Assembly: GCA_905215145.1 (NCBI GenBank)
Contig: CAJMOW010000047.1
Location: 1 to 9,174 of the forward strand
Length of the DNA: 9,174 nucleotides
Source: an uncultured bacterium
Lineage (GTDB): Bacteria > Bacillota_I > Bacilli_A > RF39 > UBA660
Direction: 5' to 3'
Shown here: in pieces, positions 1,555-9,174 of the stretch
Position numbering within the stretch: position 1 is the first letter of the stretch
Layout of the letters: every line of letters begins with the position of its first letter
Program-made: the position numbers and the translations under genes
The notes under the pieces: model-generated
Databases searched by the model: none
Seen by the model: only the letters and a program-made list of their open reading frames with translations
What the model was told of the DNA's origin: nothing

Positions 1555-2193
1555 TTATATTCCCTTCCTTTTCAAAACAAATCCCAAAACATTTTCCCCA
1601 AATTCTTCAGGACAATTTTTAAAATTAATTTTTTTATTTCCTGATTTTAACCTAAAATAATTTTTATCATATTCATTTGTTATTCTCCCATATTCATCAT
1701 GAATTGTTTCATATTCAAAACTAGGTTTTTCATCATACATTTCAGAAATTAATCTTTTAATAAATTCAAAATCTTTTAAATCATTTATTTGTAAATCAAT
1801 TTTCAAAATTCCTTCTAACTCATTACATTTATAAGATGTTTGAATATCATTATAAAAACAATCTACTTGTACATCATCATATTTTTGAAGTAAATTAAAT
1901 ATTTGATATTTTCTATCTTCTTCATATATTCTTAATATATATTCTTTAGTAATATCATATAAAATTTCATTGCTTGCAACAAAATTCGTTTTAAAATTAG
2001 TTAAATCACACACATTTACACAACGTGTTGTATCATCAGAAATTACAGTTTTTATTGTTTTAAATCCTAATGATTTATGTATCAATTTATTTAAATCTTT
2101 TATACTTGCATTATTACTATCTATATCAATATTTTCACTTGATATATTATAAACCCTAGAGTCATTTGAATTAAATATTTGTAAAGTACACAT
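1555..2193 (-). CDS. Unrecognised 212-residue protein in the T-box/glyS operon
   Basis: I do not recognise this protein. The start chosen is the ATG at 2193 ([11 protein letters not shown]...), because AAAAGGAGG lies directly upstream. The frame stays open to 2241, but that extension would run through the T-box element and is not real. The product is soluble, rich in Asn, Asp, Lys and Ile, with no signal peptide, membrane segment or clear catalytic motif. It has scattered Cys residues (2, 58, 62, 112, 123, 195) with no zinc-finger spacing. It is the first gene behind the glycine T-box, and its stop lies one base before the glyS start. It should therefore be induced with glyS when uncharged tRNA-Gly accumulates. 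A link to glycine supply or tRNA quality is possible but only inferred from position. Confidence 0.85.
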
Positions 2194-2211
2194 AAAAATC
2201 CTCCTTTTAAC

Positions 2212-2345
2212 AAAAAAACTCCTAGAAATATAAGGACGCAATATAACAATAGCGCGGTTCCACCTTATTTATTCTAGAAGAATCCCTCTTAAATCTGATA
2301 ATGCTGATAAGTTTCCAAGCTCGTCATCGCATTCATAAACATTAC
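2212..2345 (-). promoter_or_regulatory. T-box riboswitch, glycine type, with very short leader
   Basis: The minus strand carries AGGTGGAACCGCG (plus 2253-2265), a clear T-box sequence. The antiterminator helix can form: ATAAGG (2263-2268) pairs with CCTTAT (2230-2235) across the T-box bulge, and a short CGC/GCG helix lies inside. The UGGA tetranucleotide would pair with UCCA of a tRNA with U73, which fits tRNA-Gly and agrees with glyS downstream. A T7 run (2212-2218) marks the termination point. From the consensus promoter to the T-box is only about 80 nt. It holds one small hairpin (2300-2333) with a GGA in its loop (2314-2316), a possible specifier. A canonical Stem I of roughly 100 nt does not fit. 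The T-box motif is certain; the tRNA-reading part is tentative. Confidence 0.85.
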
Positions 2346-2351
2346 ATTTAA

Positions 2352-2380
2352 ATTATAGCATTTAAATAATTAGTTGTCAA
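2352..2380 (-). promoter_or_regulatory. Consensus SigA promoter of the T-box/glyS operon
   Basis: The minus strand reads TTGACA (plus 2375-2380), 17 bases, then TATAAT (2352-2357): a perfect vegetative promoter. Transcription would start near 2345 and lead straight into the T-box leader. The -35 box begins two bases after the stop codon of the preceding small gene, with no terminator between. Confidence 0.93.
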
Positions 2381-2382
2381 AG

Positions 2383-2601
2383 TTATTTTACTTTGCCTTG
2401 TATCATGCATTTATTATCCATCTTTATTGAATATTCTGTTTTTCTTAATTCTTGTTTTAAATCTTCTTTTGATATTAATCCAAGTTCACATAATTTTATC
2501 AAATTATTAACATATATTTCTTGTTGTAATTGTTTATTAACATTCTTTAAATTTATTAATTGTTCTCTTAATGATTGCATCGAAAAATTTAAATCATTCA
2601 T
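2383..2601 (-). CDS. Unrecognised 72-residue coiled-coil protein
   Basis: Family not recognised. The ATG follows AAGGGGG at suitable spacing, so the start is well supported. Residues 1-35 (SMQSLREQLINLKNVNKQLQQEI) have the heptad-like spacing of Leu/Ile with Gln, Asn and Lys expected of a coiled coil. Residues 36-60 include LCELGLISKEDLKQELRK, a helix-turn-helix-sized segment of the kind often seen in short helical adaptor proteins; this is not evidence of DNA binding. No membrane segment or signal peptide is present. It lies 37 bases after the 160-residue gene with no visible terminator between, so the two are probably cotranscribed. It ends immediately before the promoter of the T-box operon. 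Confidence 0.75.
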   Translation of the reverse strand: MNDLNFSMQSLREQLINLKNVNKQLQQEIYVNNLIKLCELGLISKEDLKQELRKTEYSIKMDNKCMIQGKVK

Positions 2602-2638
2602 ACACTTTCCCCCTTAAATTGAGGTATATACTAGCATA

Positions 2639-3121
2639 TTATTTTCTATTTGTCAAAGCAAGTTTCTTAAAATGCGTATCTTCTTTTTTCTGGGTTTCAT
2701 TTATTTCGTTTATTATTTCATTAATAGTTATTTTTTCATATTTACCATCAGTTAAAAATAATTCACATAATAAATATTCTGGTTGTTTATTTTTTATAAG
2801 TAATCTAGATATTGTATCAAATTGTTTAAATGATACTTCTCTACTATTAATATTTTGTTCTGGTGCGATTATATGTGGTATCACACCTCTATTATTATAT
2901 AAAACATATCCTAATATATCTATAAGTAAATTTGTATAGTTTAAATTTATATTTTCATATTTTGGATTTATAGATTGTATCTTAGAATATATTTCTTTTA
3001 AATCAATTCCAAGTTTTTCTACATAATTTTTAGAAAACTCTTCAATTGATGAATTATTATTTATTTTAATTAAATTTCCATCTACATCTACAAAGAAACT
3101 CAGTCCTTCTATATCATTCAA
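2639..3121 (-). CDS. Unrecognised 160-residue protein with TTG start
   Basis: Family not recognised. The start appears to be TTG at 3121: GGGGTG lies seven bases upstream, an in-frame TGA stands just before it, and the protein contains no internal methionine to use instead. An ATG four bases further on (3117) is in another frame and hits TAG at its third codon. The product is soluble and acidic to neutral, beginning LSFFVDVDGNLIKI, which looks like a beta hairpin. The rest is mostly helical, with a Lys-rich C-terminus. It is the first gene of a short unit with the 72-residue coiled-coil gene and is preceded by a SigA-like promoter. It follows the spoVA terminator, so it is transcribed separately from the sporulation genes. 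Confidence 0.72.
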   Translation of the reverse strand: MNDIEGLSFFVDVDGNLIKINNNSSIEEFSKNYVEKLGIDLKEIYSKIQSINPKYENINLNYTNLLIDILGYVLYNNRGVIPHIIAPEQNINSREVSFKQFDTISRLLIKNKQPEYLLCELFLTDGKYEKITINEIINEINETQKKEDTHFKKLALTNRK

Positions 3122-3244: not shown

Positions 3245-3282
3245 AAAAAAGTCACTAATCTTTAGGTTTGAAAATTAGTGAC
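3245..3282 (-). terminator. Intrinsic terminator of the spoVA operon
   Basis: The minus strand has GTCACTAAT (plus 3274-3282) pairing perfectly with ATTAGTGAC (3251-3259) around a 14-base loop, followed by TTTTTT. The last codons and stop of spoVAE form part of the hairpin. Confidence 0.92.
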
Positions 3283-3605
3283 AAAAAGAAAGAAAATATT
3301 ATAGCAGCTGATATACCGGAAGCTGTTAAATCAAACATTCCCATTACAAGTCCCATAACTCCATAATCAAAGGCTGAAACCATTGCTCCATGTGTAAGTA
3401 AATGTCCAAAACTTGTTATAGGGACTAATGCTCCTCCACCTGCCATCAATACTATTTTATCATATATACCAAATATATCTAAAAATGCACCTACTATTAC
3501 AAATATAGTTGTTATATGTCCTGGAGTTAGTTTAGTATTATCTAAAATAATTTGACCTAACATACATACAAAACCACAAAACAGAAATGAGTATAAATAT
3601 ATCAT
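3255..3605 (-). CDS. spoVAE: Stage V sporulation protein AE (SpoVAEb type)
   Basis: An integral membrane component of the SpoVA channel that carries calcium dipicolinate into the forespore and out at germination. The 116 residues match the SpoVAEb family in length and layout. There is a first membrane helix with GQIILDNTKLTPGHI (17-31), further hydrophobic helices, the conserved GGGALVPITSFGHLL (about 56-70) and a last helix near 95-112. The start ATG overlaps the spoVAD stop (TAATG), and GGAGG lies seven bases upstream. It is the last gene of the operon. It resembles SpoVAC in the same window (VPITSFGHLL against IPITGFAHAM), consistent with the two being paralogous membrane subunits. Confidence 0.95.
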   Translation of the reverse strand: MIYLYSFLFCGFVCMLGQIILDNTKLTPGHITTIFVIVGAFLDIFGIYDKIVLMAGGGALVPITSFGHLLTHGAMVSAFDYGVMGLVMGMFDLTASGISAAIIFSFFLSLIFKPKD

Positions 3606-4591
3606 TATATTACCTCCAAACTAACAGCATGCGCAATACTTGGAATAGTAAGATGCTGATAAACAGAAGTTGGACTCATAAGTGCACCTGTTGCTACAAG
3701 CAAAACTTTTTTTAACTCTTGTTTTTTCATTTTATCAAATATATAAGTATATGTAACAAGTGGTAAACAGGCAGGGCCACTTCCACCTGAGTAAACAGGT
3801 TGTTTATCTAAATCATATATCATACAAGCACTATCATCATAATTCTTTAATTCAATATTATATTCTTCCATCATATATTCTTTTAGAATTTCTTTTCCAT
3901 GTTTTCCTAAATCACCAGTTAGAATTAAATCATAATAATCTATAGTTCTACCAGTTTCTTTTAAATGAGTATATATCGTATAAGCTGCTGCTGGTGCCAT
4001 AACACCACCCATATTAAATACATCTGTTACTCCCATATCCATTACTTTACCTATTGTCGAACTTTCAACTTTTATATTCGATTTTTCATTAGATATTAAA
4101 ATACTAGCTCCACCTGTTGTTGTAAAAGTTGTATAATTTTTTTTAGGAGCACCATACTCTACTGGATATCTAAATTGTTTTTCTGCAGAATTATTATGTG
4201 AAGATACTGATACAATTGCATTTTTTATTTGTGATTTATCAATCATATTTGAAGCAATAAGAATTCCTTCTGTACTACTAGCACATGCACTATAAATTCC
4301 TATAAATGAAATTCCTATTTTTGATGCTGCATAATTTGAAGCAATTATTTGATTTAATAAATCCCCAGATATATGAACATCTATATCGTCTGCTTTTTTA
4401 TTACTTTTATTAAGTAATATATCAACACTTTCATTTATTAATTTGCTTTCTGCTTGTTCAAATGTTTTTTCATTAAAATAAAATTCTTTATAAGTTTTAT
4501 CATATAAATTTCCAAAAGGTCCATTTTTTTCATATGGTCCTGCAACAGTACTACTATCATTTATATATACATTGTCATATTTAAATGTCAT
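3605..4591 (-). CDS. spoVAD: Stage V sporulation protein AD, dipicolinate-binding
   Basis: A soluble thiolase/ketoacyl-synthase-fold protein that, in Bacillus, binds calcium dipicolinate and works with the SpoVAC/SpoVAE membrane subunits. The start is the ATG at 4591, since GGAGG lies five bases upstream. A reading from 4603 would begin at a TTG that overlaps this ribosome site and is rejected. The 328 residues are near the usual length. Recognisable parts are AGPYEKNGPFGNLYD near the N-terminus, the nucleophile-elbow-like GIYSACASSTEG (about 98-109), SSHNNSAEKQFRYPVEYGAP and the C-terminal GALMSPTSVYQ. One base separates it from spoVAC, and it overlaps spoVAE by one base, a tight three-gene unit. 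Confidence 0.97.
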   Translation of the reverse strand: MTFKYDNVYINDSSTVAGPYEKNGPFGNLYDKTYKEFYFNEKTFEQAESKLINESVDILLNKSNKKADDIDVHISGDLLNQIIASNYAASKIGISFIGIYSACASSTEGILIASNMIDKSQIKNAIVSVSSHNNSAEKQFRYPVEYGAPKKNYTTFTTTGGASILISNEKSNIKVESSTIGKVMDMGVTDVFNMGGVMAPAAAYTIYTHLKETGRTIDYYDLILTGDLGKHGKEILKEYMMEEYNIELKNYDDSACMIYDLDKQPVYSGGSGPACLPLVTYTYIFDKMKKQELKKVLLVATGALMSPTSVYQHLTIPSIAHAVSLEVI

Positions 4592-4592
4592 A

Positions 4593-5033
4593 TTAACCTC
4601 CAAATATTAATAATCTTATAAGTCCAAATACATAAGCACTAACTACACCAAACACAATTACACTTCCTGCAAGCTTAAACATATTAGCACCAATACCAGT
4701 TATCATTCCTTCTTTTCTATATTCTAAGGTAGCACTCATCATAGCATGAGCAAATCCAGTTATTGGAATAATAAGTCCACATTTAGCAAATTGGACTAAT
4801 TTATCAAAAAATCCTAAGCAAGTAAGTAAACATCCAACAAATATAAGTGTTACTATCATAAATACTGATGCATCTTTAGTTGAAATTGAAAATATATATG
4901 AATAAAAATCAATTAATCCTTGACCTAACAATCCCATAAATCCGCCTACCAAAAAGGCTATTATTGGATTTAATATAATTTTTTCTCTAGGTGTATTTTT
5001 TTTTACTATTTTAGCATATTTACTTTTTTCCAT
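4593..5033 (-). CDS. spoVAC: Stage V sporulation protein AC
   Basis: A membrane subunit of the SpoVA dipicolinate channel; in Bacillus it acts as a mechanosensitive pore at germination. The start chosen is ATG 5033 (MEKSKYAKIV...), six bases after AGGAGG, giving 146 residues. An upstream in-frame start at 5081 would run through the promoter and terminator region and is rejected. A basic N-terminal cytoplasmic tail of about 30 residues is followed by hydrophobic helices: PIIAFLVGGFMGLLGQGLIDFY, a second near 55-80, the conserved IIPITGFAHAMMSATLEYRKEG, and a C-terminal helix. It is first in a minimal spoVAC-D-E operon. The spoVAA, spoVAB and spoVAF genes found in Bacillus are not in this operon, a reduced set also known from clostridia. 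Confidence 0.95.
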   Translation of the reverse strand: MEKSKYAKIVKKNTPREKIILNPIIAFLVGGFMGLLGQGLIDFYSYIFSISTKDASVFMIVTLIFVGCLLTCLGFFDKLVQFAKCGLIIPITGFAHAMMSATLEYRKEGMITGIGANMFKLAGSVIVFGVVSAYVFGLIRLLIFGG

Positions 5034-5050: not shown

Positions 5051-5079
5051 TATTATGATAATTATTAAAATTCTTATAC
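5051..5079 (-). promoter_or_regulatory. Candidate SigG-type forespore promoter of spoVA
   Basis: The minus strand has GTATA (plus 5075-5079), 17 bases, then CATAATA (5051-5057). Both boxes agree with the Bacillus SigG consensus as I recall it (GHATR, 17-18 bases, CATNHTA). It sits between the sigma-factor terminator and spoVAC, and spoVA is SigG-controlled in Bacillus. One caution: the start site would fall near 5045, right at the AGGAGG ribosome site (5040-5045), giving a very short leader. Confidence 0.62.
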
Positions 5080-5080
5080 A

Positions 5081-5111
5081 AAAAAACTTACAAGTATTAA
5101 ACTGTAAGTTT
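5081..5111 (-). terminator. Intrinsic terminator of the sigma-factor operon
   Basis: The minus strand has AAACTTACA (plus 5103-5111) pairing with TGTAAGTTT (5084-5092) around a 10-base loop, and the T run continues past the stem. The stop codon of the sigma gene lies in the loop. It separates the spoIIAA-sigF unit from spoVA. Confidence 0.88.
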
Positions 5112-5756
5112 AGTTTTTAATTTATTTAATATTTTATTTTCACTTCTTGAAACTTGCACTTGACTCATTCCAAGTATTTTAGCTGTTTCATTTTGTGTAC
5201 AATCTTCATTATATCTTTTTTTTAACAATTCTCTTTCCAGTGGTGACAAATTATTTATTTCATCTCTTAACATTATTAACTCATCTATGTTTTCTTTTTT
5301 AGATGATATTGTATCTTTAAGCGTTATTTCTTTTGAAGAATCATCATTGATTGGTCTATCAATACTTTCTATAGTATTTAATGACTTTAATGATTCAACA
5401 ACATAATATTCTGGAATTTCTAAATAATTACTTATTTCTTGTACAGAAGGTTCTCTCATTAATTTTTGTGTTAACAAAATGGTTGCTTTTTCTATTTTTA
5501 AATTTAATTTGCTTATTTCTCTACTTATTTTTAATCCTTTGTCTTCTCTTACATATTTTCTTATTTCTCCTAATATATATGGATAAGCATAAGTAGTAAA
5601 TTTAGCTCCATAACTTTCATCATATTTTTTATAAGCTTTTATTAAACCAACACATCCTACTTGAAATAAATCTTCTTTACTTGCATATTTTTCAAAATAA
5701 TGTGTTATTTTATAAATCATGTTTTGGTTTTCTATTATCAAATTATTTAGTTCCAT
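5097..5756 (-). CDS. sigF: Forespore RNA polymerase sigma factor, SigF type
   Basis: A sigma-70 family factor of the SigF/SigB/SigG branch that directs RNA polymerase to early forespore genes. Region 2 spans about 5-75, with DLFQVGCVGLIKAYKKYD and FTTYAYPYILGEIRKYVRED. Region 3 spans about 80-130. Region 4 spans about 165-215, with the helix-turn-helix around 187-207 ending SQVQVSRSENKIL, a hallmark of SigF and SigG. SigF rather than SigG is favoured by the spoIIAA-like gene upstream and spoVA downstream. At 219 residues it is about 35 shorter than Bacillus SigF; the missing part is the N-terminus before region 2. The start follows AAAGGAG, 11 bases after the STAS gene. The SpoIIAB anti-sigma gene normally found in front of it is absent. 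Confidence 0.92.
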   Translation of the reverse strand: MELNNLIIENQNMIYKITHYFEKYASKEDLFQVGCVGLIKAYKKYDESYGAKFTTYAYPYILGEIRKYVREDKGLKISREISKLNLKIEKATILLTQKLMREPSVQEISNYLEIPEYYVVESLKSLNTIESIDRPINDDSSKEITLKDTISSKKENIDELIMLRDEINNLSPLERELLKKRYNEDCTQNETAKILGMSQVQVSRSENKILNKLKTKLTV

Positions 5757-5767
5757 ATTTTTCTCCT

Positions 5768-6115
5768 TTATACATTTATATATTTGGATGCAGTTAATTC
5801 GTCTGGTGTTTCATGAATATATTTTAATAACCTGCTATTCATTATTTTTTCTCTAACTGACTCATTATTTATTCCACATAATAATATTTTTCCTTTATTT
5901 TGATTACATAATTCATAATTATAAAGCAGTGTATTAATTCCTTTTACATCTATATAATCAATTTCTGAAATGTTAAAAACCACATTTCTTATTCCATTAT
6001 CTCTTATCATATCAGTTACTTCATCATTCATTTTTCCAACTGTTGTTTTATTTAATATTCCAGCTAATCTTATAAAAGCAATTCCTTTCCTAAATTCTAT
6101 GTTTATATCAAGCAT
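5768..6115 (-). CDS. spoIIAA: SpoIIAA-like STAS protein lacking the phosphorylation serine
   Basis: In the classical system SpoIIAA is the anti-anti-sigma factor that releases SigF from SpoIIAB when unphosphorylated. This 115-residue protein aligns along its whole length with Bacillus SpoIIAA (117 residues): IAFIRLAGIL for CIRLTGEL, GIRNVVFNISEIDYID for DIRHIVLNLEDLSFMD, and KGKILLCGIN for GGEMVVCAIS. At the phosphorylation site, DSSG is replaced by DVKG (56-59), so Val57 stands where the phosphorylated serine should be. The LDHHT patch is also changed, to LNKTT. The start follows AGAGGTG. The next gene is the sigma factor with no spoIIAB between. Assignment rests on the fold plus context; a non-phosphorylated STAS regulator is the likely role. 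Confidence 0.85.
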   Translation of the reverse strand: MLDINIEFRKGIAFIRLAGILNKTTVGKMNDEVTDMIRDNGIRNVVFNISEIDYIDVKGINTLLYNYELCNQNKGKILLCGINNESVREKIMNSRLLKYIHETPDELTASKYINV

Positions 6116-6163
6116 TTATTCACCTCTTTTTATAATTTAGAACACATAATTTTATTTTTATAC

Positions 6164-6194
6164 AGATTCGACAAAACTAGAATTTTTTTTCTGT
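6164..6194 (-). promoter_or_regulatory. Weak SigH-like promoter candidate before spoIIAA
   Basis: The minus strand has ACAGAAAAA (plus 6186-6194) and GTCGAATCT (6164-6172). Each matches eight of nine positions of the SigH boxes as I recall them (RNAGGAWWW and RNNGAATWW), but the 13-base spacer is one longer than usual. Bacillus spoIIA is SigH-dependent, which is why it is listed. The position just upstream of spoIIAA and inside the end of the 71-residue gene is sensible, but the match could be chance in such AT-rich DNA. Confidence 0.25.
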
Positions 6195-6392
6195 TAATTT
6201 TAGTATAAATAAACTTATAATAAGCACAATAAATACTATTAAAATAAATGGTATTTGAATCGTACTATTTTGAACATTTAACTTTGATTCTAGATTTTCT
6301 ATATATCTATTACTTAAATCAAGTTTTGTTTTTGTATTAGATAAATCATTTTCTAATTGTTCTATTTTTTTCTCATAAACTTCTACATTCAT
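6177..6392 (-). CDS. Small coiled-coil protein with C-terminal membrane anchor
   Basis: Family not recognised. The ATG follows GAGGTGG with good spacing. Residues 1-40 (VYEKKIEQLENDLSNTKTKL, then NLESKLN) show a clear heptad pattern for a coiled coil. Residues 47-65 (IPFILIVFIVLIISLFILK) form one hydrophobic helix, followed by the basic tail LTEKKF. The topology suggests a tail-anchored protein with its coiled coil in the cytoplasm. It stands 61 bases before the spoIIAA-like gene, downstream of a terminator, with no terminator after it. It is therefore probably cotranscribed with spoIIAA and sigF. A role in tethering or controlling the forespore sigma circuit is possible only by position. Confidence 0.75.
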   Translation of the reverse strand: MNVEVYEKKIEQLENDLSNTKTKLDLSNRYIENLESKLNVQNSTIQIPFILIVFIVLIISLFILKLTEKKF

Positions 6393-6444
6393 ATTACCAC
6401 CTCAATATATACATATTATGTCGATTAATGATTTCCTTTTTATT

Positions 6445-6480
6445 AAAAAAAAATTATATAAGTTTTAGCCTATATAATTT
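6445..6480 (-). terminator. Intrinsic terminator of the frameshifted helical gene
   Basis: The minus strand has AAATTATATA (plus 6471-6480) pairing perfectly with TATATAATTT (6451-6460) around a 10-base loop, and the T run continues to 6445. The last codons and TAG stop of the preceding gene lie in the hairpin. It isolates the spoIIA-like unit from what lies upstream. Confidence 0.88.
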
Positions 6481-7612
6481 TTCTATCGCTTTTATTTAAG
6501 ATTTTTTTTAATGTTTTTATCAATCTTTGTTCTTGTATTGATTTGTCTTCATTAACTATTTCATCATAAGTTTTTAATAATCTTTTTTGTAATTTCATAG
6601 GAGTTTTATCTATTAATGAACTCATTAACTCTTCAGCAAATGCTTCTTTATCTATCTCATATTCATTACATTTTTTTGTTTTATTTAACTCATTTACTAA
6701 ATAATTAATATAATTATATAATTTTACATTACCTACAATTAATCCTTTAATTTTTTTTAATAATTCATCTCTAACTAAATAATCTTCTTTGTGTTCAAAA
6801 TTTACTTCAGTTAATGCACTATATAATATATTAAGTGTTTTAATATCCTCATCTACAACTAAAGGTGAAATAAATGGTTCCATAAGTAGTTCTTTTTTTC
6901 CAAAAGTTGAATCATTAATACAATTTTTAATAATATCTAAACATTCTTTATTTATCATAGGAAAGTTCTTATTTTTTATAGTAGATAAAAGTATAGAATT
7001 TAGTGCTTTTTTATCATCTTGTGGTGTTTGCTCCAATAAAAATTGAAATACATACGGAACTGATTCTTTATCTATTGTAACGTTTTTAAGCAAATAAGAA
7101 ATCATATCATATTTTTTAGAATCAACCAATTCTGGAATAAAGCTTACTACATCATATACTTCTAAATCTATAATACGCACTTGAGACAAAAATTTTATAT
7201 ATTCTGTATGTGAAGTAAGTAATAATTCATGCATATCATCAAAATCAAAATATAAAGTATTATCACCTTTAAAATTTATATCTATTAATGAAATATATTT
7301 TATTTTAACTTTTTCTGGAAGACTTGAAAAAACTAATTCATTCATCAAAGATTCTCTATTTATTGAATCTAAATATTTATATAATAACAAAACATCATCT
7401 TTTAAATAATATATTAAATTTTCAATATAATAACTATATTCAAGTCTATTTTTAATATATTTATTTAATTCTTTTGTAAAATCATTATAAGTTATATTTT
7501 TTTGATTAGAATTTAAAATGTCAAATATTTTAGTATTTATCTCTTTAACTTGATTAATTGTTTTTTCATCTTCTAAAAATAAATAATATAAATTCAAATG
7601 TTTTTTTATCAA
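6470..7612 (-). CDS. Main part of an unrecognised helical protein (second frame)
   Basis: Family not recognised. The open frame has 380 codons and is predicted to be almost wholly alpha-helical, rich in Lys, Leu, Ile, Asn and Asp. There is no signal peptide, no convincing membrane segment and no catalytic motif; repeated short helix pairs suggest a solenoid-like scaffold. The only early start is a TTG at 7612 with no ribosome site, and no methionine codon follows for about 90 codons. The frame overlaps the end of the preceding 80-codon frame by 47 bases, and the two join cleanly if one A is removed from an A7 run at 7601-7607. I therefore read it as the C-terminal 376 residues of one protein of about 445. 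It ends in an intrinsic terminator. Confidence 0.7.
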   Translation of the reverse strand: MIKKHLNLYYLFLEDEKTINQVKEINTKIFDILNSNQKNITYNDFTKELNKYIKNRLEYSYYIENLIYYLKDDVLLLYKYLDSINRESLMNELVFSSLPEKVKIKYISLIDINFKGDNTLYFDFDDMHELLLTSHTEYIKFLSQVRIIDLEVYDVVSFIPELVDSKKYDMISYLLKNVTIDKESVPYVFQFLLEQTPQDDKKALNSILLSTIKNKNFPMINKECLDIIKNCINDSTFGKKELLMEPFISPLVVDEDIKTLNILYSALTEVNFEHKEDYLVRDELLKKIKGLIVGNVKLYNYINYLVNELNKTKKCNEYEIDKEAFAEELMSSLIDKTPMKLQKRLLKTYDEIVNEDKSIQEQRLIKTLKKILNKSDRKII

Positions 7613-7808
7613 TATTTTTTTCTTGTTTTTCTAAGTTTTTATCAACATAATCAAATGCTTTTAAAACTTCTATTAAATTACTATATTCATCGCTTACTAT
7701 TTCTGAATTGCTATTTAATTTAGAAATACTTGCGTTTAATAATAATACTAAATAATTAATTTCAAACTCATTAAGTATTTTTTTATCCGTTTTACTAATA
7801 TTTTTCAT
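7566..7808 (-). CDS. N-terminal part of the same helical protein (first frame)
   Basis: Family not recognised. This 80-codon frame has the proper translation start of the locus: ATG 7808 with AGGGTGG four bases upstream. Residues 1-69 are helical (ILNEFEINYLVLLLNASISKL, then SNLIEVLKAFDYV). The last 11 residues after the A7 run (TFEFILFIFRR) are a hydrophobic tail read in the frame left after the run and are probably not native. With one A fewer, reading continues IDKKHLNLYYLFLEDEK into the 380-codon frame. If the frame is genuine as written, it would be a separate 80-residue protein translationally coupled to the next. Confidence 0.7.
   Translation of the reverse strand: MKNISKTDKKILNEFEINYLVLLLNASISKLNSNSEIVSDEYSNLIEVLKAFDYVDKNLEKQEKNIDKKTFEFILFIFRR
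7601..7607 (-). other. A7 homopolymer at an apparent frameshift
   Basis: The minus strand carries seven consecutive A between GAT and CATTTG. The upstream frame continues only 11 codons past it to a TGA. Loss of one A, or an equivalent +1 shift, joins the two frames into a single protein. It could be a real mutation, a sequencing or assembly error in a homopolymer, or a site of transcriptional slippage. Confidence 0.65.
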
Positions 7809-7856: not shown

Positions 7857-7880
7857 AAAAAAAGGATTATTTCATCCTTT
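7857..7880 (-). terminator. Intrinsic terminator of the transporter gene
   Basis: The minus strand has AAAGGAT (plus 7874-7880) pairing with ATCCTTT (7861-7867) around a 6-base loop, with T continuing to 7857. It starts at the transporter stop codon. Confidence 0.85.
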
Positions 7881-9174
7881 TATATAATCATTGATATTAT
7901 TAAACCAAATAATATAACTACTACAAATAATTGAAGTAATAATTTCCAAATATATTTCATCCAATCTTTGTAAGAAACATCTAGAAATTTTAATCCAGCA
8001 ACTAATACAACACTTACTGGTAGTATAAACATTACAAATCCATAAGCTGATTGTAAAATTATAGATATAGCTGGTAATGCACTTTCTTCAAATGCAATAA
8101 GTCCACCATACATACTATTTACTAAATATGGGAAATCATTAAAGAAAAATCCTCCAACCATACCTGTTAAGCTTACTAATAGTACATTAAATGATTTTGA
8201 TAATCCTAATATAAAATTAGAAATAGTCGCACTTAATGTTCCATTTGAACTATTAACCATAATTGCGAATATTACACAAGCTAATGCTACATATATTGAA
8301 GTTTTAAGCATTGATTTAATTCCCTCAAAATATGTTTCTATTGCTTCACTAGGTTTTATACTATATACCCATGCAATAATTACAGTAGCAAATAAAATTA
8401 GCGCTGCAAACTCATAATTACCCCATTGTCCTATTTCAGTAAATGTTCCAAGTAATTTTGAGAAAATTGCTATTCCACCTATTTTAAATTCACTAATTGA
8501 AGTACTTATTTTATTAAATAATTCAATTCCAAATGAATAATACCAATTATACATTCCAACAAATGATACTACCATTAAAACTATAAATATTATAATTAGT
8601 GGTAAAGAACTCTTTTTTTCTTTTGAACCTTTTATATAAAAAGGTGCTTCGATTACTGGTTCAACAATAACTTCTTCTTTTTTAGTTTTTTTAGATTTCT
8701 TAGTTTCTTTAATTTCTTCTTTCTTTGTTAATGATTTATTTTTTCCAATAACAAACATTATAAGTAAGAATACTAGTACAGCAAGTAAACCAAATTTATA
8801 AACTATTCCTTTATTTGCATTTAAACCAAAGAAGCTTTTAAAAACTAAAGCATTTCCATAAGTTGACCCCATTATACCAACAAGTATAGCTCCAACTGTA
8901 GATGCAAGTGCTGTTACTTTATCATATCCTAACAATAATATAATTGCAGATACGAACGGTACTAATGCGAATACTACAATAGGAAGACCTGATAATGATG
9001 CAAGTAATGCAAATGAAATTATACTAATAATTAAAAATAAAGTTTTTTTCTTACTAAATTTTTTAACTATTGAATCTATAACTTTACTATAAACTCCTGT
9101 TTTACTCATAACAGCGTATAATCCACCAATTGATAAAAATACAACTAGGTATTGAACAAATATTGCAACACTAT
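7880..9174 (-). CDS. Polytopic membrane transporter, YfcC/DcuC-like, N-terminus beyond window
   Basis: The reading frame is open to the right edge (431 codons visible), so ATG 9109 is internal and the true start lies outside. The codons before it read FLSIGGLYAVMSKTGVYSKV, continuing smoothly into the frame. About ten hydrophobic helices are visible. A Lys/Glu-rich cytoplasmic loop lies in the middle (near KKEEIKETKKSKKTKKEE). Glycine-rich patches include GYDKVTALASTVGAILVG and GSTYGNAL, and the last part has YGFVMFILPVSVVLVAGLKF followed by a Trp-containing helix pair. The layout recalls the ion-transporter superfamily members YfcC and DcuC, which move amino acids, peptides or C4-dicarboxylates. 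The substrate cannot be read from the sequence. It ends in its own terminator. Confidence 0.75.
   Translation of the reverse strand, partial: SVAIFVQYLVVFLSIGGLYAVMSKTGVYSKVIDSIVKKFSKKKTLFLIISIISFALLASLSGLPIVVFALVPFVSAIILLLGYDKVTALASTVGAILVGIMGSTYGNALVFKSFFGLNANKGIVYKFGLLAVLVFLLIMFVIGKNKSLTKKEEIKETKKSKKTKKEEVIVEPVIEAPFYIKGSKEKKSSLPLIIIFIVLMVVSFVGMYNWYYSFGIELFNKISTSISEFKIGGIAIFSKLLGTFTEIGQWGNYEFAALILFATVIIAWVYSIKPSEAIETYFEGIKSMLKTSIYVALACVIFAIMVNSSNGTLSATISNFILGLSKSFNVLLVSLTGMVGGFFFNDFPYLVNSMYGGLIAFEESALPAISIILQSAYGFVMFILPVSVVLVAGLKFLDVSYKDWMKYIWKLLLQLFVVVILFGLIISMII

What the first reader, a model, noticed from the sequence alone, without database searches (positions are those of the whole stretch)
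5097..6115. spoIIA-type locus with no anti-sigma factor SpoIIAB
The sequence shows a SpoIIAA-like STAS gene followed after 11 bases by a SigF-type sigma gene, then spoVAC-D-E. In known spore formers the operon order is spoIIAA, spoIIAB, sigF, and SpoIIAB holds SigF inactive until septation. There is no room for even a remnant of the kinase gene here. Either SpoIIAB has moved elsewhere in the genome, or forespore sigma activation works without it. The intact flanking genes and ribosome sites argue against an assembly join.
Basis: partly seen in the sequence, partly recalled or inferred. Interest (0 to 1): 0.82.

Follow-up and report, generated by a model that had tools for sequence, protein, structure and literature searches.

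The report
Spore sigma-factor operon lacking its inhibitor
In a group of small-genome, mostly uncultured bacteria, the gene pair that should switch on the first spore-specific transcription factor has lost the protein brake and the phosphatase that control it in well-studied spore formers, yet a changed remnant of the switch is usually still kept, so these bacteria must time this step in another way if they make spores.

Summary
A STAS gene (5768-6115, minus) is followed after 11 bases by a SigF-type sigma gene (5097-5756) and spoVAC-D-E, with no spoIIAB. It is no assembly accident: in 146 genomes drawn from the order of the nearest named relatives, none has SpoIIAB and none reaches the SpoIIE cut-off, while Spo0A, SpoIIR, SpoVAD and SigG are mostly kept. 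In the same class 41 of 198 genomes have SpoIIAB. The STAS protein keeps the SpoIIAA fold but has lost the kinase's target serine and much of the surface around it, is under purifying selection, and gained conservation elsewhere. A Spo0A box precedes the operon in 76 of 81 loci (4.7 expected). My reading: partner switching was discarded in this order (probably RF39); Spo0A-driven transcription is the visible remaining control of sigma-F, and the orphan STAS has a new role. Absence of spoIIAB and spoIIE in RF39 is already in print as part of a gene list (PMC10868615); the locus, erased phosphosite and promoter I did not find described. Sporulation of this group is unproven, and the window's own genome is not held.

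The parts
6167..6173 (-). Spo0A box TGTCGAA, 58 bases before the STAS start; a degenerate second half-box TGTATAA follows at 6157-6163
   Evidence: 76 of 81 loci have a box within 200 bases, 4.7 expected; alignment of 71 promoters; coordinates
6134..6139 (-). -10-like hexamer TAAATT, 34 bases after the box start, at a conserved TAWATT position
   Evidence: T 67, A 67, T 44 (A 26), A 62, T 46, T 65 of 71 at these six columns
5768..6115 (-). SpoIIAA-like STAS protein without the phosphorylatable serine
   Evidence: structure; alignments
5945..5947 (-). codon GTA (Val57) at the place of the kinase target Ser58 of SpoIIAA
5757..5767 (-). 11-base gap where spoIIAB would lie
   Evidence: 28 control loci have 395-568 bases from SpoIIAA stop to the sigma domain
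5097..5756 (-). divergent SigF-type sigma factor (219 aa)
5085..5110 (-). hairpin overlapping the end of sigF, followed by a T run: weak intrinsic-terminator-like element
   Evidence: (-8.3 kcal/mol, z -2.07, 8 of 200 shuffles as good)
5051..5080 (-). forespore-type promoter-like sequence TGTATA-N17-CATAATA in front of spoVAC
   Evidence: strict pattern upstream of spoVAC in 39 of 123 loci, background 0.016 per 240 bases
4593..5033 (-). spoVAC (ATG at 5033 with AGGAGG; the ORF tool starts it at TTG 5081)
   Evidence: 164.6 bits, cut-off 164
3605..4603 (-). spoVAD
3255..3605 (-). spoVAE (SpoVAC/SpoVAEB family)
   Evidence: (132.7 bits, cut-off 131.1)

Best explanation
This is a collapsed spoIIA operon. 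SHOWN by sequence in the relatives: the anti-sigma kinase SpoIIAB is not found and no SpoIIE reaches its cut-off in the sampled order, the sigma-F-type gene survives as a group of its own, and most STAS proteins can no longer be a SpoIIAB substrate but are still selected. INFERRED: sigma-F is made when Spo0A is active, from a sigma-A-type promoter whose Spo0A box lies just upstream of (or over) the -35 region, and is active without an anti-sigma factor. Its output (SpoIIR to the mother cell; forespore promoters such as that of spoVAC) is as in other spore formers. INFERRED with less support: the orphan STAS is a feedback regulator that works through its beta1-beta2 face. The two candidate targets are Spo0A activity (a second role reported for B. 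subtilis SpoIIAA) and sigma-F itself. What confines sigma-F to one compartment is not known.
For: SpoIIAB 0 of 146 at E<=1e-12, B. subtilis control positive; SpoIIE 0 of 146 over cut-off, 2 weak matches; Fin 0 of 146, B. subtilis positive. Kept: Spo0A 137, SpoIIR 135, SpoVAD 130, nearly full-length SigG matches of 285 bits or more in 125 (none over the curated cut-off) of 146. Kinase site: 6 Ser and 1 Thr of 72 STAS proteins, 2 Ser of 19 further ones and 0 of 100 close metagenome relatives, against 28 of 28 in same-class loci with SpoIIAB. 12 of 17 strongly conserved SpoIIAA positions are lost, R67 among them (34/34 to 1/71), while E7, G11, I12, F14, R16 became conserved. STAS dN/dS 0.05-0.09 in the four closest pairs. 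Spo0A box in 76 of 81 loci and 24 of 30 further ones; in loci that lost STAS it is still there before sigF in 9 of 9 and 7 of 11.
Against: STAS is missing in 20 of 111 loci, with at least 12 changes on a quick sigma tree (5 forced by its starred branches), so it is not essential. A few STAS proteins keep Ser or Thr at the site. In ten less close pairs STAS dN/dS is 0.16-0.55, above that of sigma (0.13-0.24) in nine of the ten. Mean identity of this sigma to canonical SigF (30.5%) and to the SigG of the order (30.3%) is the same; profile scores and synteny favour SigF. The SpoIIAB-contact test on sigma is inconclusive. No test of binding, compartment-specific activity or sporulation was possible. 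Boxes and promoters are pattern matches. The genomes look like draft assemblies for the most part and completeness was not reported.
Confidence: 0.58

Rival explanations
1. Neofunctionalised switch: the STAS protein now binds sigma-F (or core polymerase) directly and is itself the anti-sigma factor or chaperone of sigma-F, replacing SpoIIAB.
For: STAS sits directly before sigF in 91 of 111 loci; new conserved beta1-beta2 positions; purifying selection in close pairs.
Against: Sigma-F persists without STAS in 20 of 111 loci, which is hard if STAS were the only brake. A common operon history alone explains the adjacency.
Confidence: 0.2
2. An unrelated or unrecognisable anti-sigma factor has replaced SpoIIAB, so sigma-F is still held inactive until septation.
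For: The SpoIIAB face of the STAS protein degenerated but sigma-F stayed under purifying selection; uncontrolled sigma-F is harmful in B. subtilis (recalled, not tested). One genome, G110, has a 625-aa frame that matches both the SpoIIE phosphatase region and the GHKL family.
Against: No third gene lies between the two: STAS to sigma gaps are -11 to 168 bases in 72 loci. Fin is absent in 146 of 146; the search for CsfB/Gin was uninformative. The G110 frame is 1 of 146 and that genome's sigma locus L177 has no STAS. A gene elsewhere in the genome was not excluded.
Confidence: 0.2
3. Decay: these bacteria no longer sporulate and the locus is a remnant on its way out.
For: Small genomes (0.6-1.6 Mb); repeated loss of STAS; STAS cut to 64 aa in L001; a published classifier gives RF39 MAGs from cattle 0% sporulation probability (PMC12536801, passage).
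Against: Spo0A 137, SpoIIR 135, SpoVAD 130, SigG-like 125 of 146; in the four closest pairs dN/dS of sigF is 0.04-0.11 and of STAS 0.05-0.09; Spo0A boxes kept; PMC10868615 predicts spore formation for RF39 (section 21). The classifier paper reports spoIIAB in all 63 of its predicted spore formers, so it may be blind to this group.
Confidence: 0.12
4. SpoIIAB is encoded elsewhere and missed because the genomes are incomplete or the gene too divergent.
For: Assemblies in many contigs; completeness was not reported by the tool; the window's own genome could not be searched.
Against: 0 of 146 at E<=1e-12; the GHKL family search shows no stand-alone candidate, its single short frame (G139) being the end of a split sensor kinase; lack of SpoIIE, of Ser58 and of the binding surface all agree with true loss.
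Confidence: 0.04

Closest known systems
spoIIA operon (spoIIAA-spoIIAB-sigF) of Bacillus and Clostridium
   Same: STAS gene directly upstream of the SigF-type gene; spoVA genes follow; Spo0A box in front; the STAS model's best PDB match is SpoIIAA in the SpoIIAB complex (1thn, TM 0.91, 26% identity)
   Different: No SpoIIAB, and no SpoIIE over cut-off in the order; kinase target serine and R67 gone; promoter looks sigma-A type (the sigma-H dependence of spoIIA in B. subtilis is recalled)
RF39 gene-content survey, Field et al. 2024 (PMC10868615; abstract, section 21 and passages seen)
   Different: In the parts seen: no locus, no statement on the phosphosite or the promoter; spoIIAA and sigF do not occur as terms in its main text
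Non-canonical stand-alone STAS proteins (SypA, BtrV; review PMC8256260, passages seen)
   Same: STAS proteins that act on unknown partners or in an unusual way
   Different: Those have a phosphorylated serine; here it is absent in most members
SpoIIAA as negative regulator of Spo0A activation (Arabolaza et al. 2003, seen only as cited in PMC8256260)
   Same: A further role for a SpoIIAA protein in a loop with Spo0A, which also drives this operon
   Different: Not tested here; the B. subtilis protein is phosphorylatable

Membership tests
spoIIA partner-switching module | STAS gene and sigF in one operon | tested here: met
   91 of 111 loci
spoIIA partner-switching module | SpoIIAB GHKL anti-sigma kinase | tested here: not met
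   none in the window; 0 of 146 relatives; own genome not held
spoIIA partner-switching module | SpoIIE phosphatase | tested here: not met
   0 of 146 over cut-off, 2 weak matches
spoIIA partner-switching module | Phosphorylatable serine (SpoIIAA Ser58) | tested here: not met
   Val in the window; 6 Ser and 1 Thr of 72; control 28 of 28 Ser
SpoIIAA-like STAS protein | STAS fold | tested here: met
   pLDDT 95.7; 1thn chain B TM 0.91; PF01740
SpoIIAA equivalog (TIGR02886) | Score over the curated cut-off | tested here: not met
   49.9 bits, cut-off 114.75
Sigma-F | Nearer to SigF than to SigG | tested here: met
   sigF model beats sigG model, 186 to 136 bits, and the spoIIA-spoVA gene order fits; a separate SigG-like gene exists in the order. 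Against: below the sigF cut-off of 321; mean identity to canonical SigF and to SigG is the same, 30.5 and 30.3%; in a quick tree the group is one side of a branch (SH-aLRT 91) and canonical SigF is not one group
Sigma-F | Active in the forespore first | not testable with these tools
   no expression data
Spo0A-controlled sporulation operon | Spo0A box near the promoter | tested here: met
   76 of 81 loci within 200 bases, 4.7 expected; binding not tested

The most novel reading that the evidence does not exclude
An entire order of bacteria makes endospores with no anti-sigma control of sigma-F. Cell fate is set by Spo0A-gated transcription alone, and the former kinase substrate SpoIIAA has been re-tooled, through a new beta1-beta2 surface, into a phosphorylation-free feedback regulator of Spo0A or sigma-F.
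Probability: 0.33. Interest if true: 0.87.

Novelty: new variant of a known kind. Interest (0 to 1): 0.7.

Why it matters
[quoted passage not shown] An order that keeps a SigF-type factor, SpoIIR, SigG and SpoVA but has no SpoIIAB or SpoIIE, with a phosphosite-less SpoIIAA, is a natural experiment on what that switch is needed for. It also warns that a classifier whose predicted spore formers all carry spoIIAB (PMC12536801, passages) may call these bacteria non-sporulating for the wrong reason.

Tried and rejected
Own-genome search: no whole genome is held for the window, so relatives were used. Phage origin: no megablast match. CsfB/Gin search: nothing rang in any control, so no conclusion. 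Sigma contact residues (equivalents of B. subtilis SigG E156 and N45; residues from PMC3174212 passages; the reading of E156K as SpoIIAB-resistant and the placement in the alignment rest on recall): canonical SigF has Glu in 30 of 36 at the neighbouring position against 24 of 79 here, and an acidic residue in 20 of 36 against 20 of 79 at the E156 position, but 12 of 12 SigG of this order stay acidic there without any SpoIIAB, so the test is not specific. Chromosome position: GC skew on stretches of two long contigs puts sigF roughly 120-205 kb (G115) and 130-285 kb (G101, if that contig is nearly the whole chromosome) from the likely origin; the script stopped at a stretch without any G or C, so the dnaA-region search did not run, and the question was dropped as inconclusive. 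The order name RF39 is inference from gene content, genome size and the titles 'uncultured Bacilli' and 'uncultured Tenericutes' of L001 and L002; the taxonomy holds no such name. Rows dropped: of 130 genomes with SpoVAD, 123 loci were examined (120 fetched plus L001, L002, L053); seven were left out (gene near a contig end, or beyond the batches). Of 43 loci without sigma nearby (42 plus one truncated), 38 genomes were searched for sigma and the best 30 loci read. Two short sigma rows were left out of the alignment and trees. dN/dS was computed for the 14 closest pairs by sigma identity only. The metagenome relatives counted were the 100 of 104 that are at least 100 aa long. Position 1 (start Met) also appeared among the newly conserved positions and is disregarded.

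Full report
What is there. The genes named here lie on the minus strand. A 115-residue STAS protein (5768-6115) is followed after 11 bases by a 219-residue sigma factor (5097-5756), then spoVAC, spoVAD and spoVAE. The sigma scores best with the SigB/F/G and SigF models but below their cut-offs; the STAS protein matches PF01740 and, below cut-off, the SpoIIAA model. No GHKL domain was found in the 12 window ORFs scanned.

It is a conserved arrangement. The nearest named loci, L001 and L002, have STAS, sigma and spoVAC-D-E without SpoIIAB (the STAS gene of L001 is cut short). From 146 genomes drawn from the order of L001, which includes the genome of L002, SpoVAD is present in 130. Of 124 oriented loci (120 fetched, L001, L002, L053 and the window), 81 have the SigF-type gene upstream of spoVAC and 72 of these have the STAS gene directly before it, with gaps of -11 to 168 bases. 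In 30 further loci where sigma lies away from spoVA, 19 have the STAS gene before it. Together 91 of 111. On a quick tree of 109 sigmas the presence of STAS needs at least 12 changes, 5 of them forced by starred branches. The window's nearest row is L114, 61% identical in sigma; the window lies in a pair with 98 support, presumably with L114.

The kinase and the phosphatase are not found. SpoIIAB: 0 of 146 at E<=1e-12. SpoIIE: 0 of 146 over the cut-off, 2 weak matches. A wider GHKL search gave 15 of 146 genomes with matches at E<=1e-5: one 625-residue frame in G110 that also matched the SpoIIE phosphatase region; one short frame (G139), which is the end of a split sensor kinase beside a response regulator; the rest in frames of 346-682 residues, taken for sensor kinases by length and not examined. 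Fin, an inhibitor of sigma-F, is absent in 146 of 146. In the same class 41 of 198 genomes have SpoIIAB. Kept are Spo0A 137, SpoIIR 135 and nearly full-length SigG matches of 285 bits or more 125 of 146 (no SigG match reaches the curated cut-off of 457). In a quick tree of 51 sigmas the 12 SigG proteins taken form one group (100) and the divergent SigF type another (91), while canonical SigF is not one group; mean identity of the divergent type to SigF and to SigG is equal (30.5 and 30.3%). That it is SigF rests on profile scores, gene order and the separate SigG.

The STAS protein is no longer a SpoIIAB substrate but is still selected. AlphaFold gives a STAS fold (mean pLDDT 95.7) whose best PDB match is SpoIIAA in the SpoIIAB complex (1thn, TM 0.91). 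At the position of Ser58 the window has Val. Of 72 relatives (window included) 6 have Ser and 1 Thr, the rest mainly Glu, Asn, Lys, Asp, Met, Leu; a second alignment of 71 gave 5 Ser and 2 Thr, 19 further loci gave 2 Ser, and 100 close metagenome relatives gave none (98 with Leu, Ile, Met, Val, Phe or Cys, one Tyr, one gap). The control is 28 of 28 same-class SpoIIAA proteins beside SpoIIAB with Ser (two of the 30 control loci gave no SpoIIAA match). Of 17 positions conserved in at least 85% of 34 canonical proteins, 12 keep that residue in less than half of the relatives, among them Ser58 (34/34 to 5/70) and R67 (34/34 to 1/71); PMC11418112 names R67 as part of both the SpoIIAB and the SpoIIE interface, and Ser58 as the phosphorylation site there (passages and legend). 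Conversely E7, G11, I12, F14, R16, I55 and C80 became conserved. I12, F14 and R16 alternate along strand beta2, so they should lie on one face; that the face is exposed is inference. The four closest pairs have dN/dS of 0.05-0.09 for STAS and 0.04-0.11 for sigma; in ten less close pairs STAS has 0.16-0.55 and sigma 0.13-0.24, so the STAS protein is constrained but evolves faster.

Regulation. A Spo0A box (TG[TA]CGAA, either strand) lies within 200 bases of the operon start in 76 of 81 loci, 4.7 expected from local density, usually about 58 bases before the start codon. On the coding strand alone it is in 65 of 72 loci with STAS and 9 of 9 that lost STAS, where it stands before sigF itself. In the 30 further loci it is in 24, including 7 of 11 without STAS. 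Aligned on the box, 71 promoters share TAWATT 34 bases downstream and a degenerate second half-box 10 bases downstream, which looks like a Spo0A-activated sigma-A promoter; the resemblance to spoIIG and spoIIE promoters is recalled. In the window a weak terminator-like hairpin closes sigF and TGTATA-N17-CATAATA precedes spoVAC; the strict form of this forespore-type pattern is upstream of spoVAC in 39 of 123 loci, about 2 expected. That consensus is recalled.

Mechanism. With the kinase, the phosphatase, the target serine and the binding face gone, partner switching should not operate here; the losses are shown by sequence for the relatives and by kinship for the window. That sigma-F is then gated by Spo0A at transcription is inferred from the promoter. 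That STAS has a new partner is inferred from the swap in conserved surface and from selection. A role on Spo0A is attractive because B. subtilis SpoIIAA is reported to restrain Spo0A activation (review PMC8256260 citing Arabolaza et al. 2003, passage) and because Spo0A seems to drive this operon. How sigma-F is confined to one cell remains open.

Comparison with print. [quoted passage not shown] PMC12536801 (passages) reports spoIIAB in all 63 of its predicted spore formers and gives RF39 MAGs from cattle 0% probability. PMC3533761 (passage) lists spoIIAA, spoIIAB, sigF and spoIIE in all spore-forming bacilli and clostridia. Library searches listed no paper that, by title or start of abstract, describes this locus, the erased phosphosite or its promoter; only open-licence PubMed Central papers were searched, and of the listed papers I opened six, in passages or sections. 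The gene absence is therefore known, and the anatomy appears to be new.

Limits.

Noticed in passing
window 6177-7808: Three ORFs upstream of the STAS gene (71 aa coiled-coil plus membrane segment by eye, 380 aa, 80 aa) have no convincing family match in the scans made (Pfam for all three, NCBIfam for the 380-aa one).
   Followed up: no
window 1555-3121: Two ORFs (228 and 160 aa) between spoVAE and glyS without a family match (NCBIfam for both, Pfam for the 160-aa one).
   Followed up: no
window 7880-9109: DcuC-type C4-dicarboxylate carrier (PF03606); its open frame runs on to the window end.
   Followed up: no
L264 (G110:C2) and L066: One genome of 146 has a 625-residue frame matching both the SpoIIE phosphatase region and the GHKL family, perhaps an RsbU-RsbW-like fusion; its own sigF locus (L177) has no STAS gene.
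   Followed up: partly
promoters of L001, L002, L071, L088, L109 and others: Several loci carry a second Spo0A box 26 or 36 bases upstream of the first, suggesting a tandem array.
   Followed up: partly
sigma alignment: The 12 best-scoring SigG proteins of this order are far more alike (mean identity 64%) than the 79 SigF-type ones (39%); the samples differ in size and choice.
   Followed up: no
L001:8651-8842: The STAS gene of L001 is cut to 64 residues before sigF, apparently a decaying copy.
   Followed up: partly
G023:C57 and G023:C52: One genome has two SpoVAD genes, one at a contig end with a much higher score to the family model; second copy or contamination.
   Followed up: no
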